Source: DHVE2 group archaeon (lineage in GTDB: Archaea; Thermoplasmatota; Thermoplasmata; Thermoplasmatales; Aciduliprofundaceae). From it: a stretch of 10,739 bases of DNA. Below, one piece after another: positions 1 to 9,847 of the stretch. How positions within the stretch are numbered: the first letter of the stretch is position 1; every line of letters starts with the position of its first letter. The translations under genes and the position numbers were made by a program. The stretch lies in the NCBI GenBank assembly GCA_027056155.1, contig JALULR010000096.1:1-10739 (forward strand). Reading direction: 5' to 3'. The notes beneath the pieces are model-generated. The model was not told the DNA's origin. It saw only the letters and a list, made by a program, of their open reading frames with translations, and ran no database searches.

Positions 1-1088
1 GTTCCGCATGTTAAAAGATGAGAAGGTTATAATCGTAATAGATGAGTTTCCAAATATGATTAAAGAAAACAAAGGAATAGCTTCCAAATTTCAAAAGATT
101 TGGGATCAAGTTCTATCTAAAACTAAGATAAAAATAGTGCTGCTCGGCTCTTCAATCAGAGTGATGGAATCTCAGGGTTTAGGATACAGAAGCCCGCTTT
201 ACGTACGCAGAACCTGACAGATACATCTAAAGCCACTTAAATTCATACATGTGCGGGAATTTTTCCCGGACAGAGTATAGAAGATGTTGTGAAGATATTC
301 GGATTGACAGATGGCATTCCGGCATATATAAGAGAAGTTGTCTATCGTTTCGAGATGGGAGAGAAACTGGAAGATGTTTTTCTACATAATAAACCGCTGT
401 TTGAAGAGGCTAATTACCTGCTCAGATATGAGATAAGAGACCCCGTGAGACATGCCCAGATTTTGAAAGCCATAGCGCTGGGGCACACAAAGTTTGGTGA
501 GATAGTGAATTTCACCGGTTTTTCTAATTCTACAGTGTCTCAATACCTGAGCAATCTGCAAACTTTGCATATAGTAGAGGTGGAATATCCAGCAGGAGAA
601 CCGAGAAAAAGAGATGCGAGATACAGGATTGTGGATAACTATTTCATCTTCTACTTTCGGTTCATATATCCAAACAAGTCCCGGCTCCTAGAGGGAAGAA
701 GAATTCCTGATTTTGAGAGTAAATACAACTAGTACCTCGGCTACGTGTTTGAGAGAGTAGCTAGGGAGTTCATGGTGGAGATAAGCGCAAGAAATAAACT
801 TCCTTTTTTCGTCGAGGATATAGGTAGATGGTGGAGCAAGGGAGAAGAGATAGATATCGTAGCAATAAACAGAGAGAAAAAGAAAGCACTTCTTATGGAA
901 GTGAAGTGGAGCAATTTGAACGAAAGGGAGGTGAATAGAATAATGCGCGAACTGACTAACAAATCCGGGCCTAAAAGCATTCAGAGGTATCAAAAATACT
1001 AGGGAATATTTGCAAAGAACATAGTGAATAAAGAAAAAAGAGAGCAAACTACGTTGCATATGACTTGAGAGATTTTTCTGAGTTATAA
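1..1088 (+). pseudogene. Decayed archaeal AAA ATPase with C-terminal DUF234 nuclease-like domain (5' end outside window)
   Basis: This is a remnant of the archaeal ATPase family (ATPase_2 N-terminal, DUF234 C-terminal). Seen: a Walker B strand (VIIVIDEFPNM, 29-61), a sensor-1-like strand (KIVLLGSS, about 128-152), then the family hallmark RRT before a TGA at 215-217 where the family usually has Gly. The frame after that TGA continues in family-like fashion (QIHLKPLKF..VREFFP) to about 265, then shifts at a C run near 266, as if one base were lost. A winged-helix segment follows (about 460-620), then a TAG at 730-732, then YLGYVFERVAREF and a PD-(D/E)XK-like core (EEIDIVAI..LLMEVKW, about 845-912). 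A further TAG lies at 1000-1002. A second frameshift near 1035-1044 restores the usual ending, YVAYDLRDFSEL, with a TAA at 1086-1088. The P-loop lies before the window. The intact family members are thought to be toxin- or mobile-element-associated ATPases of unclear role. Confidence 0.85.
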
Positions 1089-1572: not shown

Positions 1573-4500
1573 ATGCCCCGTATTATTCGCCTTCCATTCA
1601 CCGGCGAGGAACGCACTAAGATTTTAGAGGAGAGGGGCTACGATCTAGAACGTATAAAACGAGCAACACCAGAAGAGCTCGCTAATGTTTTGAAAATAAG
1701 TGAATATCTCGCGTATTTAATTATAAAAGCTGCAAATGAGGCAAATGTAGAAAATGTGCCAGACGAGCTCGTGCCTAAAGAGAGAATCTGCCCAAAATGC
1801 GGAAATATAATCACCGGACTTGAGTACGAATGCGGAAAATGCGGGTACCGCATTAAAAATATAGACATGGAGTACTACGAGCGATACATATCCAAATACG
1901 TAGATACTTTCATAGCGCTTTCTAAGAATCCGCGTGATGGAGCTTTATGGCTAAGATTGAAGGAAATATACGAAGCGCTAGGAAACGTTGAAGAAGCTCT
2001 AGATGTATCATTAAAAATTGACCTCTTAAAAGATGAGGGCATACAAATTCCCTCTGAAGATATAAAAAATGAGGAGCCGAGTGTTGAAAAAGCGCAAAAA
2101 GTTGCACCTGTGCCCGTAGCTATCGAGCCAGCCGCACCCGTTATTAAAGAAGAGCTCGCTGAGATTCCTGAGAAGCCCGACCAAAAGACAAAATTCAAAA
2201 ACGGTCTTGTTAACGGCTTTGGAGTGCGCCCCGCATTTACTAAAAAAGAGGTAAGAAAAAGGCGCATGATAATAGTGGGCTTGGTATTTGCGATAATTGC
2301 CGCAGCATTTGCGGTAGTATTTGTAGAAAGCCCGCCATATAAAATAGATGGTAATTTGGGTGAATGGGCAAACATACCGTCGTATGGCACATTCAGTTCC
2401 AAATTCACATCTTTTAAAATAGGTGGCTATGGCAATTATGAATATTTGGAGATTACTGGCAAGTTGGATTTACGCGGTGGGGTAAATATATTAATTGATG
2501 AAGACTCTAGCGCAAGCACTGGTTACTCATACGGAAAGCTAGGCTCAGAGTACAGAATGTTTATATTCGACAGCGGTAAACTCAGAGGCGTTTTATATCA
2601 TTTTGAGTCCAAAGACACGCATAACTGGACAGGTTGGAAAAAAGTTGGGGGAGTGAAAGTTGCTGGAGACTCAGATGGCATCGAGCTCAGAGTACCTAGA
2701 AACATATTCTCCAAGTACGCCGTTGCCGAGCTAGTTAATGATGGCGTGTCATCAGTTCCCATAAGTTTGTTCAAGCCAATGATTGTAGGAATTATGAATT
2801 TAGGAGGGGGAGTAGCCATTAACAACACGAAGATAGGCACACTGTACTTAAATAACACATACATCAAAAGTGCAACCGTAAAAGGATTGCTATTATCAAA
2901 CATAGGAAGTAAATCACTGCCAGTATCTCTGTGGTATGAAGGTAGAGAAATAGGATACGGAACCACAGGCACATACATCTCGCTAAAAAACAATATAAAC
3001 ATCAAGAGAAGTGCAGCAATCACAGTGCTCTATGCGGGAGGCGCCGCCAACGGCACAAAAATACGACCACATCTTAAAAGCATAATTGGTGCAACAAGCC
3101 TAGGTTACACTATAGGTGATGGCTTTTACGTAAATGAAACTCCTTCAACACCAGTTATTGATGGAATATATGCAGATTGGATAAAATACAGAAACTCAAC
3201 TGTTAGCGGAAACTCTGCACCAAGCGAGGACATAGTATCATTTGCTGAGTATGCTGGACCAAGAGAATCATATTACTACCTTCAAACAAGGGGCGAGATG
3301 GCCACAGGCATATTAGTACCGCTTCACAGCAGCTCTCCGAAAGATAGTGATAGAGACGGTGTGCCGGATAGCGAAGACCCATACCCAGAGGATTTCAACA
3401 ATGATGGCATACCTGATAACGAGAGCTTTGTTGTTGTAAACGGCACGCGCATGCCCGATGTAGATGGAGATGGAATACCCGATTATCCGTACGGCAAGGA
3501 TATGTGGCTTAATACCACTATACCCCGGGATCCGAAGATTCCACAAAAATACTGGGGCAAAAAGGTTAGTGTATATATTGGCCCCGCTAAGGGCGCAAAG
3601 CCCACGTACCCCTATGATTTTCTCGAGATATACATAAGTGGTAATAAGGGCTTCAGTATAGGTGGCATTAATGCACAGTATTTGTTCAGACTGTACGGAA
3701 TAGGAGGCACAATAACCAAATACGAGTTTTTTGAATACAAAAACAACAAGTTCACAAAAGAGAGCATAGATTTTGATAAAACGCGAGACCTAGCAAAAAG
3801 CTGGGCACGATTAGAAATGAAGCTACCTCTAAATATCAGCAATAGAGATGTGATATACAGAATAGTTAGCTACGGAGCCTTCTACAAGGACATGGCCCAC
3901 GCTCCTTTCGCAAATGTAATGGATATTCACGAGCCAGCTAAGCCAAACAATACTACGCATACTTCACAACCGCAGTTTCCAGCAAGTTTCAATCCCATGC
4001 AAGTGAATAACCCGGATAAGGACCCTATAGCGGGTAAATTCGTAGCACAGCTAGTAAATAAATACCAGAAAGATATAAATATTTACAAGCTCACATATTG
4101 GCTCTCAACTTTGGACTTACCCAAGGGTGCTGAGAAAAATCATGTATTTACAAGTGCGGATTTTATCGACGGTCATGTATCGCATTTCAAAGAAGAAGAC
4201 TATGCGTACAATAAAATGAAAGAGATAATAGACAAAGAGGGCATGCGTCCAATATACCGCGTAGAGCTCCTGAACGCAAGTATATTCAGGGAAGAGTGGA
4301 CAAACCTCACCTTAAAAACCAAACAATGGGAAATTTTGCACTGGATGCATGACCTAGAAAACATGAGAAATAAAGATAAAGATTATAGTGACCCCTATAA
4401 ACTAAATTGGTACAATCCGGAAGATATCCGCACATTAGAATGGTTAGGGTACAAATTAGAACAAAACATAAATGACTGGCACATGGCATTTAATATAGCA

Positions 4501-6399
4501 AAGGGCATAAAAAGCATCGATGACGCGAGAATCGGCCCGTTTTTCGCAGTATATCCCACAAAAGCTGCGAGAGAGACAAACTGGAGCGTGAAAACTAGAG
4601 CTGGCCCAACACACACCGTAACGTTCCAGCTTGTGAGGTGGTACAGTGGCACAAGTGATTGTCATGGAGATAATGATGGCTATGTGAAAATCACTATTGG
4701 CTCTTGGCAATATGTCTCCGGTGAAAGGGAAGATGATGATTCGTGGAACGCGAGAATTATTTTTACAAATAGCAACACAACTGGAACTGCGGCGTATATA
4801 AAATTAGAAAACTGGGAAGACGATAGCGGACTATGCGGTGGAGACGATGATTACGGTTCTGCCTCATTCACATACTATTTTTCAACTAAAACATGGAGTG
4901 GCTCGGCTTCCACACCGTACGTGCATACCTCCGGCGACGATGGCTCGGCTTATGACTGGTTTGTTATAGAAGGCGGCGATGATAACGAGGCGAAGATGGG
5001 CATTTACGAGCCAAATGGTGACAATGACCCAATGTATGGAGGAATATGCCTCAATGATCCATGGGATAGCCCAACTATTGTAACCTACTATAGTGGACAA
5101 CAGTATAGGGGGTATGGATACTATCTGAGCAGTTACTATGCTTTTTATGTACCATATGGAAAAACAATATCTGTACATCTTCAACCGTCTTCTTATAATT
5201 ATGATTTATACTTGTACGATCCCTCAGGAAACCAAAAAGCGTATTCGAATAATGGAGGGACCTCTGAAGATGACATAAGTTTTACGGCGGATTCATCAGG
5301 ATATTGGATTATTAGAATATACGACGCATCGGGAGGACATAGCGACTGGTTTAAGTTTTGGTTTACCTCAGGCCCAGATGATAAGGATTTCGCTGATATT
5401 TCGCCCACCACCGGAAATAGCGATACAGGGTATCTTATCCAATCATACGGGGGAGTTACGTACTACGATAGCAGCGATGACTGGAAATTCTACGTGCCCT
5501 CATCGTGGATATCTGGAAAGGGTGTGTTATTCTTCTGGATGAAACCGAATCCCAATGCAAATTTCAATGTGCAATTGTACGATCCTGGTGGCAATTTGAA
5601 AGCCACTGGTGCTTCTGGAGGCGCGGGTCAGGTAGATTACGTAATTTATAAGCTTCAAAGCACGGATTCCGCCGGTTTCTGGTACGGCCGCGTGCTGCCC
5701 GCATCATCTACAGACTACGGCAACTATACCATAGTTTTCTGGGCTGGTTATGTTGTAGATTTCTACGCGCAAACGGATAATTCAGGAGCGCACACGCCCA
5801 TGCACTCTGATAACGGAGTGAAGGTTACTTACTCATGTTTAGGCACACAGTACAACGTGTATCCAAACGATGATTATTACTGGGAAGTATATGTAGATAG
5901 AGACTCTTCCTACTCTTATGCATCTGAGTCAAATCTCTCCAACGACGCTAACGGGCATAGGTGGATATCGCAGAATCCGCCAAGCGGCACAATAAGCACA
6001 GGTGGAAGCATCGCTGGGCATTACTACGAGCAGTTTTATCTCACTATTAATACTGCGCACGATACCGGATATTCCTCGGGTAAGTACTTTGGAGCGGATA
6101 AGAGTTACAGCGCTCCCGGCTCTGGGTGGTACGATGCTGGCTGCACTGTAACCATAAGAGTGGATAGCACAGTTAATGAGAACGGTAAGAGATACCAATT
6201 TCTATCATGGACTGGCAGCGGTACGGGCAGTTACTCTGGAGCGGATAATCCTGCATCATTTACCATTAGCGCCGTAACAACCGAGACTGCAAACTGGAAT
6301 GAGGTGCCCGAGTTCTCAAATTTAGCTTACCTATTCTTTGCTCTAGCCATACTGGGATTTTTCGCATATCAAAGAAGAAAGAGAGCTAGACTGAGATAA
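1573..6399 (+). CDS. Very large single-pass surface protein: cytosolic HhH, zinc ribbon and TPR-like head; multi-domain exterior; PEF-type C-terminal tail
   Basis: 1608 aa; no function can be named. Residues about 10-58 look like a helix-hairpin-helix domain of the RadA N-terminal kind (ILEERGYDLERIKRATPEEL). Residues 73-90 form a zinc ribbon (C73, C76, C87, C90). Residues about 104-150 are TPR-like helices. A Pro/Glu/Ala-rich linker leads to KKEVRKRR and a transmembrane helix at 232-251; by the positive-inside rule the head is cytosolic. Outside come a CBM9/DOMON-like module (about 256-385, opening IDGNLGEW), a second weaker IDGIYADW module (from about 529), three calcium-type DxDxDG loops (591-599, 607-615, 629-637), a His-containing helical region (815-1000), an acidic Cys-containing region (1020-1160), two PPC-like beta modules (about 1183-1264, 1287-1390) and a bacterial-adhesin-like beta repeat (about 1505-1575, ending TETANW). 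The end is VPEF, a hydrophobic helix (1583-1599) and RRKRARLR. ATG 1573 is chosen from promoter spacing. Extracellular binding or adhesion is inference. Confidence 0.85.
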   Translation: MPRIIRLPFTGEERTKILEERGYDLERIKRATPEELANVLKISEYLAYLIIKAANEANVENVPDELVPKERICPKCGNIITGLEYECGKCGYRIKNIDMEYYERYISKYVDTFIALSKNPRDGALWLRLKEIYEALGNVEEALDVSLKIDLLKDEGIQIPSEDIKNEEPSVEKAQKVAPVPVAIEPAAPVIKEELAEIPEKPDQKTKFKNGLVNGFGVRPAFTKKEVRKRRMIIVGLVFAIIAAAFAVVFVESPPYKIDGNLGEWANIPSYGTFSSKFTSFKIGGYGNYEYLEITGKLDLRGGVNILIDEDSSASTGYSYGKLGSEYRMFIFDSGKLRGVLYHFESKDTHNWTGWKKVGGVKVAGDSDGIELRVPRNIFSKYAVAELVNDGVSSVPISLFKPMIVGIMNLGGGVAINNTKIGTLYLNNTYIKSATVKGLLLSNIGSKSLPVSLWYEGREIGYGTTGTYISLKNNINIKRSAAITVLYAGGAANGTKIRPHLKSIIGATSLGYTIGDGFYVNETPSTPVIDGIYADWIKYRNSTVSGNSAPSEDIVSFAEYAGPRESYYYLQTRGEMATGILVPLHSSSPKDSDRDGVPDSEDPYPEDFNNDGIPDNESFVVVNGTRMPDVDGDGIPDYPYGKDMWLNTTIPRDPKIPQKYWGKKVSVYIGPAKGAKPTYPYDFLEIYISGNKGFSIGGINAQYLFRLYGIGGTITKYEFFEYKNNKFTKESIDFDKTRDLAKSWARLEMKLPLNISNRDVIYRIVSYGAFYKDMAHAPFANVMDIHEPAKPNNTTHTSQPQFPASFNPMQVNNPDKDPIAGKFVAQLVNKYQKDINIYKLTYWLSTLDLPKGAEKNHVFTSADFIDGHVSHFKEEDYAYNKMKEIIDKEGMRPIYRVELLNASIFREEWTNLTLKTKQWEILHWMHDLENMRNKDKDYSDPYKLNWYNPEDIRTLEWLGYKLEQNINDWHMAFNIAKGIKSIDDARIGPFFAVYPTKAARETNWSVKTRAGPTHTVTFQLVRWYSGTSDCHGDNDGYVKITIGSWQYVSGEREDDDSWNARIIFTNSNTTGTAAYIKLENWEDDSGLCGGDDDYGSASFTYYFSTKTWSGSASTPYVHTSGDDGSAYDWFVIEGGDDNEAKMGIYEPNGDNDPMYGGICLNDPWDSPTIVTYYSGQQYRGYGYYLSSYYAFYVPYGKTISVHLQPSSYNYDLYLYDPSGNQKAYSNNGGTSEDDISFTADSSGYWIIRIYDASGGHSDWFKFWFTSGPDDKDFADISPTTGNSDTGYLIQSYGGVTYYDSSDDWKFYVPSSWISGKGVLFFWMKPNPNANFNVQLYDPGGNLKATGASGGAGQVDYVIYKLQSTDSAGFWYGRVLPASSTDYGNYTIVFWAGYVVDFYAQTDNSGAHTPMHSDNGVKVTYSCLGTQYNVYPNDDYYWEVYVDRDSSYSYASESNLSNDANGHRWISQNPPSGTISTGGSIAGHYYEQFYLTINTAHDTGYSSGKYFGADKSYSAPGSGWYDAGCTVTIRVDSTVNENGKRYQFLSWTGSGTGSYSGADNPASFTISAVTTETANWNEVPEFSNLAYLFFALAILGFFAYQRRKRARLR

Positions 6400-7863: not shown

Positions 7864-9789
7864 TTATATGTCCAAATTCATAACTTCCCTCGCGTGCTGG
7901 ATTATAAAATCCCTCCTAGGCTCCACAGCTTCGCCCATCAATATGGAAAACAGGCGGTCTGCCTCAGCAGCGTCTTCAATGGTTACCTGTATCAATCTCC
8001 TTTTTTCCGGCTCCATAGTAGTCTCCCAGAGCTGTTGCGGATTCATCTCTCCGAGACCTTTAAATCTCTGCACAGATACATTTTTTAGCTCATTAACCAT
8101 CTTTTCTTTCTCTTCGTCACTATATACATAGTACACATCTTTGCCTTTCTGAATCCGATAAAGGGGCGCTTGCGCTATGTACACGTGCCCATTTTCAATG
8201 AGTTCGGGCATATAACGATAGAAGAAAGTAAGGAGCAAAGTGCGGATATGCGCGCCATCTACATCGGCATCGGTCATTATTATGATCTTATGATAGCGCA
8301 ATTTAGAATAATCAAAATCTTCCCGCACACCTGTACCTATTGCAGAGATCAAAGCGCGAATCTCCTGATTTTTAAATACCTTATCGATTCTCGCCTTTTC
8401 CACATTCAATATTTTGCCGCGCAGAGGCAGTATTGCCTGAAAATGCCTGTCTCGGGCTTGCTTTGCACTACCCCCCGCAGAATCGCCTTCCACAATGAAT
8501 AGCTCCGCACGCTCTGGATTCTCTTCAGAGCAATCTGCTAGTTTGCCCGGCAGGTCAAGTGACTCTAAAAAGCTCTTTCGCCTTGCAATCTCTCTCGCTT
8601 TTCTCGCAGCAATGCGCGCCCTTGCAGCGGCTATAGCCTTACTTGCGATGACCGTGCCCACGTCTGGGTGCTCTTCAAAATACCTTTTGAGGCTCTTGGT
8701 CACAATCGAGAACACTATTCCCTTCACTTCACTATTTCCCAGTTTTGCTTTTGTCTGCCCTTCAAACTGCGGGTTAGGGTGCCTTACATGAAGCACAGCC
8801 GTTAAACCCTCGCGCACGTCTTCGCCCTGCAAAGTAATATCCTTCGAAATCTTTTTATCTTTGGCAAAATCGTTAATAACTTTCGTTAAAGCGCTTCTAA
8901 ACCCGGCAACATGCGTGCCGCCTTCAATAGTATTGATAGTATTTACAAACGCAAGCAGGTTCTCAGAAGTGCTATCATTATACTGCATCGCAAACTCAAC
9001 TATGGTGCCCTCGCTTTCATCGTAGCCGTATATCACATCTCTATGGAGCAGAGTAGAGCCCTCATTGAGGTACCGCACAAACTCAATTATGCCTCCTTCA
9101 TAGTAGAACTCATCTTGGTTTCCATTGCGCTTATCAAGTAAAGTGATGCGTACACCTTTGTTTAAAAATGCAAGGTACCGGAGTTTTTTGCGTATAGTAT
9201 CATATTTTATGGTAGTGGTCTCAAATATTTCTGCATCTGGCTTAAATCGAATGTAGGTGCCACGGGAGTACTTGAACTCCTCCTCAAAATCTCCGTATTT
9301 GAATGGGCCCACCGCGGCATCGCCAACTACCGTAACGTCCATTTGCGGCTTTCCTCGTATATACCATTGAAAATACACTTTCCCATCTCTCCGCACATAC
9401 GCACGTAGCCACTCTGATAGGAAATTTACCACATGTATGCCCACACCATGCAAACCTCCCGTAATGCGATACGCTTTTTTGTCAAATTTCGCACCAGCAT
9501 GCAAAACAGTAAGCACTATTTCAAGGGCGCTTTTTCCTTTGTCTGGGTGAATATCCACAGGTATGCCGCGCCCGTCATCTTCCACGCTCACGCTACCATC
9601 TTCGTGAAGTGTCACGGTTATATTGTGGCAATGCCCGGCAAGTGCCTCATCAATAGAGTTATCCACAACTTCATACACAAGATGATGCAGGCCCCGCTCG
9701 TCGGTGCTACCGATATACATGCCGGGGCGCTTTCGCACAGCTTCTGCATCTTGCAAAATCTGAATGGCCTTTGCATTGTATTCTTCCAT
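7864..9789 (-). CDS. gyrB: DNA gyrase subunit B (ATPase and TOPRIM subunit)
   Basis: This subunit powers negative supercoiling by gyrase A2B2, the type IIA topoisomerase. The 641 aa length matches the short GyrB form without the large C-terminal insertion of E. coli. The GHKL ATPase part shows YEVVDNSIDEA (E40, N44), DDGRGIP (71-77) and GGLHGVG (111-117). The transducer part carries the ATP-contacting lysine in QTK (345-347). The TOPRIM part shows EGDSAGG (434-440, catalytic E434) and the metal-binding DADVDG (507-512). The tail has QRFKGLGEMNPQQLW. ATG 9789 gives MEEYNAKAIQIL, a typical start, and sits about 25 nt from a TATA box; the frame is open 18 codons further up without family similarity. 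gyrA is not next to it downstream, where cysS converges, nor upstream. Gyrase in archaea is generally thought to have come from bacteria. A ParE/TopoIV identity is less likely in this setting. Confidence 0.95.
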   Translation of the reverse strand: MEEYNAKAIQILQDAEAVRKRPGMYIGSTDERGLHHLVYEVVDNSIDEALAGHCHNITVTLHEDGSVSVEDDGRGIPVDIHPDKGKSALEIVLTVLHAGAKFDKKAYRITGGLHGVGIHVVNFLSEWLRAYVRRDGKVYFQWYIRGKPQMDVTVVGDAAVGPFKYGDFEEEFKYSRGTYIRFKPDAEIFETTTIKYDTIRKKLRYLAFLNKGVRITLLDKRNGNQDEFYYEGGIIEFVRYLNEGSTLLHRDVIYGYDESEGTIVEFAMQYNDSTSENLLAFVNTINTIEGGTHVAGFRSALTKVINDFAKDKKISKDITLQGEDVREGLTAVLHVRHPNPQFEGQTKAKLGNSEVKGIVFSIVTKSLKRYFEEHPDVGTVIASKAIAAARARIAARKAREIARRKSFLESLDLPGKLADCSEENPERAELFIVEGDSAGGSAKQARDRHFQAILPLRGKILNVEKARIDKVFKNQEIRALISAIGTGVREDFDYSKLRYHKIIIMTDADVDGAHIRTLLLTFFYRYMPELIENGHVYIAQAPLYRIQKGKDVYYVYSDEEKEKMVNELKNVSVQRFKGLGEMNPQQLWETTMEPEKRRLIQVTIEDAAEADRLFSILMGEAVEPRRDFIIQHAREVMNLDI

Positions 9790-9810
9790 AATTTTGGAAT
9801 ACCGCAATGT

Positions 9811-9818
9811 ATTAAAAT
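9811..9818 (-). promoter_or_regulatory. TATA box of gyrB, leaderless type
   Basis: On the minus strand this reads ATTTTAAT, centred about 25 nt before the ATG at 9789. No purine-rich ribosome-binding sequence lies between the box and the ATG. The spacing places the transcript start at the start codon. Confidence 0.45.
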
Positions 9819-9847
9819 GCTTTCTCTTCTTGCAAGGTAACAAGAAT

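What the first reader, a model, noticed from the sequence alone, without database searches (positions are those of the whole stretch)
1573..6399. Single protein joining a DNA-repair-type HhH domain, zinc ribbon and TPR-like head to a giant exterior binding region
Seen: RadA-like helix-hairpin-helix (residues 10-58), four-Cys zinc ribbon (73-90), helical repeat (104-150), one membrane helix (232-251), then about 1330 residues with CBM9/DOMON-like, calcium-loop, PPC-like and adhesin-like modules. HhH and zinc-ribbon domains are normally nucleic-acid or protein binding and lie inside the cell, whereas the rest is of the S-layer/adhesin type. Inference: it may couple something outside the cell to a cytosolic partner (chromatin, ribosome or another protein), or the head may be a protein-protein module. 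I know of no described system with this layout.
Basis: partly seen in the sequence, partly recalled or inferred. Interest (0 to 1): 0.7.

Follow-up and report, generated by a model that had tools for sequence, protein, structure and literature searches.

The report
Swappable-head archaeal surface protein family
An archaeon makes a giant cell-surface protein whose inner end carries small modules best known from DNA-repair and ribosomal proteins, and it turns out to belong to a large, apparently undescribed archaeal family in which such inner heads are exchanged between outer parts.

Summary
Residues 1-160 fold confidently as a Hel308/RadA-type HhH, a four-Cys zinc ribbon and a TPR-like unit, in one ORF with a ~1,330-residue exterior. 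Nine homologues keep the same join, so it is no assembly error. That linker leads to the main result: a Thermoplasmatota family with a constant core (NG linker, membrane helix, 'IDG..W' beta-domain, usually a PE-motif C-terminal anchor), variable exteriors and interchangeable cytosolic heads (HhH, zinc ribbons, TPRs, degenerate KaiC, or NG array with no detected domain). In one genome two paralogues are 66% identical from the linker outward but have unrelated heads. I favour protein docking and clustering, because heads are so varied and no catalytic one was found. A DNA tether remains open: the window HhH is closest to Hel308's and keeps R14 and K/R16, and the charge argument against DNA is weak. 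Partners are unknown. Ten paper searches found no description. New variant of a known kind; interest about 0.6.

The parts
1573..6399 (+). whole gene, 1608-aa double-anchored surface protein with cytosolic head
   Evidence: ORF; nine homologues with 42-86% identity over 78-100% of the query
1582..1743 (+). HhH domain, residues 4-57 (Hel308 C-terminal / RadA N-terminal type)
1789..1842 (+). four-Cys zinc ribbon, C73-x2-C76-x10-C87-x2-C90
   Evidence: invariant Cys; ribosomal S27ae zinc ribbon match E 0.0051
1867..2034 (+). TPR-like three-helix unit, residues 99-154
2059..2247 (+). disordered linker, residues 163-225
   Evidence: pLDDT mostly below 50 for 163-222
2200..2217 (+). NGLVNG juxtamembrane motif, residues 210-215
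   Evidence: N210, G211, L212, N214, G215 invariant in 9 heads; NG within 60 aa before TM1 in 148 of 148 members, 957 NG observed vs 43 expected
2269..2325 (+). membrane helix 1, residues 233-251, N-in
   Evidence: hydropathy 3.15; AF2 helix 226-252
2341..2772 (+). first 'IDG..EW' beta-domain (CBM9/DOMON-like), part of the family core
   Evidence: A4 profile; weak CBM9-type PDB match E 0.0084
3151..3942 (+). second 'IDG..DW' domain with inserted calcium-type loops
   Evidence: alignment conservation; homologous in distant member P0121
3343..3483 (+). DxDxDG calcium-type loops, residues 591-637
   Evidence: sequence and invariant Asp/Asn in 10 orthologues; the loop-type name is recalled
4030..4542 (+). 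conserved helical module, residues about 820-990, fold and function unknown
   Evidence: also in three paralogues without this head (L043-L045); AF2 helices; E874, E875, R896, W909, H923, E929, D983, D984 invariant in all 8 aligned rows
4594..4986 (+). extracellular C2 domain, residues 1008-1138, with invariant C1030 and C1088
5134..5322 (+). PPC domain
   Evidence: PF04151 26.1 bits, cut-off 25.9
6304..6396 (+). C-terminal anchor: VPEF, membrane helix 1581-1599, basic tail
   Evidence: hydropathy and alignment; C-terminal helix in 130 of 148 members, 129 with basic tail, 124 with a PE motif

Best explanation
This is one orthologue group of a Thermoplasmatota family that I call NG-hinge proteins (my label). 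Shown by sequence and models: a folded head, a disordered NG-containing hinge, a membrane helix, a large glycosylation-sequon-rich exterior and a C-terminal membrane anchor, with different heads on like exteriors. Inferred: the exterior is a loop pinned at both ends that binds surface ligands or membranes, partly through calcium (C2, DxDxDG loops, CBM9-like domains). The head is a docking platform for a cytosolic protein, used to cluster, position or retain the surface loop. The NG hinge is a flexible spacer, perhaps also a self-association segment. HhH, zinc ribbon and TPR act here as interaction modules. The partner is unknown.
For: Order HhH-zinc ribbon-TPR-NG-TM-exterior in 71 of the 117 heads that could be delimited out of 158 members (41 skipped; in-house HMMs seeded from family members; sampling biased by my two queries). 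Distant member P0121 shares HhH+ZR (residues 7-94, 32%, E 4e-7) and the exterior from residue 210, the NG motif, to 697 (28%, E 1e-23). Head exchange: L100 and L102, same genome, 66% identical from the hinge region outward, no head match at E 1e-5 (five zinc ribbons after an unmatched N-terminal region that looks KaiC-like by eye, against HhH+TPR). Topology signals. No catalytic head: 6 of 6 KaiC-type heads lack a strict Walker A motif. HhH net charge: median 0 of 53 domains and -1 of 66. C2 domain.
Against: No partner is known; the docking role is inferred from domain type only. HhH and zinc ribbons are most often nucleic-acid modules, and the window HhH is closest to Hel308's. The charge argument is weak: the RadA HhH used as yardstick nets -3, and 10 of 53 and 4 of 66 family domains net +3 or more. 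In several members no head domain was detected (P0147-P0150, P0152; L098, L106, L108, L109), so a folded head is not needed in every member. The C2 part of the model has pLDDT of only about 35-64.
Confidence: 0.45

Rival explanations
1. Nucleoid-envelope tether: HhH and zinc ribbon hold DNA at the membrane.
For: The Hel308 C-terminal HhH scores 40.8 bits against the window-clade HhH profile, nearly as high as a true family member (P0121, 44.8) and above an ERCC4-type HhH (21.0, 19.1). R14 is invariant and residue 16 is K or R in 10 of 10 orthologues, matching Hel308's RAR (its DNA role is recalled). One paralogue clade has basic HhH domains, net +6 to +7 (P0013, P0014, P0037, P0038).
Against: Acidic E13 invariant and residue 12 E or K at the first hairpin; position 41, glycine in 4 of 10 orthologues, is K in the window protein. 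Net charge near zero in the clade: -7 to +2 over residues 1-60 or 1-64 of 9 members, -6 to +3 over HMM-bounded domains of 9 members; but RadA's own HhH nets -3. Many heads lack a detected HhH.
Confidence: 0.2
2. Outside-in receptor: ligand or calcium binding outside changes the head's state and recruits regulators inside.
For: Large ligand-type exteriors; heads of TPR, zinc-ribbon and KaiC type, common in archaeal signalling (recalled); head exchange resembles receptor modularity.
Against: No kinase, cyclase, methyl-acceptor or active ATPase domain appeared in the Pfam rows shown; 6 of 6 KaiC heads lack a strict Walker A; a disordered hinge with up to 43 NG is a poor rigid signal transmitter.
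Confidence: 0.18
3. Biogenesis head: TPR and zinc ribbon recruit chaperones, ribosome or Sec during export of the giant exterior, with no later role.
For: Zinc ribbon resembles ribosomal S27ae; the exterior exceeds 1,300 residues; heads vary while the membrane core is constant.
Against: Three paralogues carry the helical+C2 module without such a head; heads can be elaborate (seven TPR_1 stretches in L104) and differ between like exteriors.
Confidence: 0.13
4. Assembly or annotation artefact joining two genes.
For: The source is a fragmented draft genome (278 contigs).
Against: Nine homologues with the same join; head and exterior in one frame in three other genomes, G001, G004 and G006.
Confidence: 0.01

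Closest known systems
Hel308 C-terminal HhH and RadA/Rad51 N-terminal HhH
   Same: Hel308: 40.8 bits against the window-clade profile, 27.1 bits in the PDB scan. RadA: 28.7 bits, 32-46% identity over 55-57 residues in structure
   Different: Here at the cytosolic end of a membrane protein, no helicase or recombinase attached
Single-pass bacterial surface proteins with a cytosolic zinc ribbon (TcaA type; recalled, search gave nothing usable)
   Same: Zinc ribbon inside, one helix, exterior outside
   Different: HhH and TPR in addition, NG hinge, second anchor, giant exterior; homology not tested
Eukaryotic LEM-domain/Heh inner-nuclear-membrane proteins (recalled, not tested)
   Same: Small helical chromatin-type domain before a membrane helix
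   Different: Different fold, topology and partners; DNA binding here unproven
Perforin, extended-synaptotagmin and CAR-type C2 domains
   Different: Archaeal, extracellular, with two invariant Cys; binding untested
Archaeosortase-processed surface proteins (PEF/PGF-CTERM type, recalled)
   Same: PE motif, membrane helix, basic tail at the C-terminus
   Different: PF09721 found in only 7 of 31 genomes and not in G002, G004, G005 (93-96% complete), which carry the family

Membership tests
HhH domain (HHH_5/HHH_2) | HhH fold and profile match | tested here: met
   (orthologue over cut-off); P0001 alone is below the Pfam cut-off
HhH domain (HHH_5/HHH_2) | DNA binding | tested here: inconclusive
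   charge and hairpin residues point both ways; no assay
Zinc ribbon | two CxxC knuckles conserved, beta strands | tested here: met
TPR | helix-turn-helix repeat with profile match | tested here: met
   one repeat-like unit only; Pfam sub-threshold in P0001
C2 domain | C2 beta-sandwich fold | tested here: met
C2 domain | calcium-dependent membrane binding | not testable with these tools
   D1029, D1035, D1054, D1084, D1091 invariant is only suggestive
PPC | PF04151 over cut-off | tested here: met
   marginal
Archaeosortase substrate | cognate sortase present in the genome | tested here: inconclusive
   none in the own draft genome (70% complete); 7 of 31 genomes searched have one
S-layer lattice protein | forms a lattice | not testable with these tools
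   no structural or expression data
NG-hinge family (defined here) | NG motif within 60 aa before TM1, IDG..W domain after it, C-terminal anchor | tested here: met

The most novel reading that the evidence does not exclude
Thermoplasmatota have a general inside-outside coupling system: a constant hinge-plus-membrane core into which evolution plugs different cytosolic heads and different giant exteriors. The hinge is a length-variable NG polymer, and members with Hel308-like or basic HhH heads tie the cell surface directly to the nucleoid.
Probability: 0.17. Interest if true: 0.85.

Novelty: new variant of a known kind. Interest (0 to 1): 0.6.

Why it matters
If right, an archaeal phylum uses one modular scaffold to connect surface and interior, and the exchanged heads are natural baits for finding the unknown cytosolic partners. 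Two complete single-contig genomes of a sister genus carry one member each (G011, G013; by size I presume Aciduliprofundum, recalled), so it may be testable in a cultured organism. It also places a C2 domain outside an archaeal cell. Automatic names such as 'lamin tail domain-containing protein' or 'helix-hairpin-helix domain-containing protein' hide the family.

Tried and rejected
Enzyme hypothesis for residues 820-990: it looked like a His/Asp/Glu metal site, but H857 and H926 are lost in all three paralogues without the head and H871 in two of three; of these four His only H923 is kept throughout. No solved relative of that part appeared by sequence, and the fold search was filled by the C2 part, so the helical part is barely tested.

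Neighbourhood: the flanks are partly conserved in other genomes but not in the window. A class-V aminotransferase follows the gene in L002, L004/L021 and L096 (three genomes, 90-94% identical), and a divergent ERCC4-HhH nuclease precedes it in L002 and L096; neither was found in the window, L095 or L097 (the L095 stretch ends with the gene itself, so its downstream side was not seen). I tested whether that nuclease donated the head HhH: its HhH scores 19-21 bits against the window-clade profile, Hel308's 40.8, so no.

Archaeosortase processing is not required. The whole-protein profile against the PDB gave three designed proteins only. Foldseek for the head gave nothing significant; the profile search, the confident model and VIA-align carry the claim. 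The first NG and sequon tally included members without a detected helix and was replaced, which dropped 10 of 158 without a 19-residue window of hydropathy 2.0 or more. The HMMs were seeded from members, so their 'HhH-TPR' class (13 heads, P0015 type) is partly circular: Pfam showed only TPR in P0017 and the window-clade HhH profile does not match P0022. Absence from a sister family (0 of 61) has no positive control inside that family.

Literature: ten searches, seen as listings and abstract beginnings; passages read in PMC11188069 and PMC3581485; none of what I saw describes this layout. Most subscription papers and bioRxiv itself are not in the library.

Full report
WHAT WAS CLAIMED.

NOT AN ARTEFACT. 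Nine other proteins carry the same head and exterior (86, 63, 64, 60, 56, 45, 45, 45, 42% identity; the three at 45% lack the PPC stretch), with the four zinc-ribbon Cys invariant. A partial orthologue lies in a record named DHVE2 group archaeon, which places the window near Aciduliprofundum (beyond the record title, recalled).

THE FAMILY. In 26 of the 87 match rows the homology begins at residues 204-210, at the NG motif. A profile of NG, membrane helix and the following IDG..W domain (A4) matches 17 of 18 genomes of the window's own family (10 of 10 of high quality), 0 of 61 of a sister family in the same order, and 22 of 292 genomes drawn across the phylum, 17 of 137 genera; two of the 22 are weak (G175, G188). 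At most 11 candidates per genome were scored there; G134, G287 and G290 each matched at 11 separate places. Rows are matches, not proteins: some ORFs match twice, and G011 and G013 hold one member each while G004 has six separate loci. Among 158 collected relatives, 148 had a clear TM1: all 148 have at least one NG within the preceding 60 residues and 142 have two or more (957 NG against 43 in shuffled heads). Sequons are depleted in heads (124 against 222) and enriched outside (2905 against 1341); 130 have a C-terminal helix, 129 of these with a basic tail and 124 with a PE motif. These relatives were gathered by homology and include fragments, so the counts show consistency, not independent events.

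HEADS ARE MODULES. Of 117 delimited heads (of 158; 41 skipped), 71 read HhH-zinc ribbon-TPR, 13 HhH only, 13 HhH-TPR, 4 TPR only, 4 zinc ribbon only, 3 zinc ribbon-HhH-zinc ribbon-TPR-zinc ribbon, 1 TPR-zinc ribbon, 1 HhH-zinc ribbon-TPR-zinc ribbon, and 7 with none detected, at least one of them (P0041) cut at its start. The HMMs were seeded from members, so weak classes, above all HhH-TPR, are partly circular. Independent Pfam scans of 32 hand-picked members find HHH_5 in 21, TPR_2 in 17 and double zinc ribbon in 14. P0121, a distant member, has HHH_5 at 12-60 (E 3.5e-13), zinc ribbons within 76-146 and TPRs within 220-359, the same order as the window. Others carry long TPR arrays (L104, L105) or a KaiC-type domain (P0160, 80 bits); six KaiC heads examined lack a strict Walker A. 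L100 and L102, from one genome, are 66% identical from the hinge region outward but have unrelated heads: heads have been exchanged at the hinge.

MECHANISM. Shown: layout, conservation, topology signals, modular exchange. Inferred: the head docks to a cytosolic protein and so clusters, positions or retains the surface loop; the hinge is a flexible spacer of variable length; the exterior binds ligands or membrane partly through calcium. The main rival is a DNA tether. For it: the window HhH is closest to Hel308's C-terminal HhH among the DNA-repair HhH domains compared (40.8 bits, near a true family member's 44.8), R14 and K/R16 are kept in 10 of 10 orthologues, and one paralogue clade is basic. 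Against it: invariant acidic E13 and near-zero net charge, but the RadA yardstick nets -3, so charge decides little; and many heads carry no detected HhH. Enzymatic signalling is weaker because no catalytic head was found in the scans made.

CONTEXT. In three other genomes a class-V aminotransferase follows the gene, and in two of them a divergent ERCC4-HhH nuclease precedes it; the window has tRNA-Leu and cysteinyl-tRNA synthetase instead. The nuclease's HhH is not the closest relative of the head.

NOVELTY. Ten paper searches (listed under tried and rejected) gave no description; the string NGLTNG occurs in none of the 5.39 million papers of that library. The parts are known domain types and single-pass surface proteins with inner adaptors are a known kind, hence 'new variant of a known kind'.

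Noticed in passing
window 2-217, 289-732, 745-1002 (+): Open frames that look by eye like pieces of one archaeal ATPase broken up; possibly a decaying gene. Described only, not searched.
   Followed up: no
L023:1801-3936; L032: About 700-aa multi-membrane proteins of the same archaea with HHH_5 (47 bits), several zinc ribbons and C-terminal TPRs (L023 by Pfam; L032 by eye): another membrane protein built from the same modules.
   Followed up: partly
L043, L044, L045: Proteins with the same helical module plus C2 domain but without the HhH/zinc-ribbon/TPR head or NG hinge.
   Followed up: partly
L002:117-797, L096:7380-8051: Divergently placed ERCC4-HhH nuclease gene directly upstream of two orthologues of the window gene; whether this is more than chance was not tested.
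   Followed up: partly
L099, L108, L106, L081, L090: Long near-perfect arrays of GLTNGN or RTNG units (up to 43 NG in one head) before the membrane helix.
   Followed up: partly
P0213, P0160, P0196, P0203, P0210: Heads with a KaiC-type domain lacking a strict Walker A; the precomputed Pfam list of P0213 holds HhH, KaiC and double zinc ribbon together.
   Followed up: partly
window 7864-9843 (-): A DNA gyrase subunit B gene (Pfam) beside the cysteinyl-tRNA synthetase gene.
   Followed up: no
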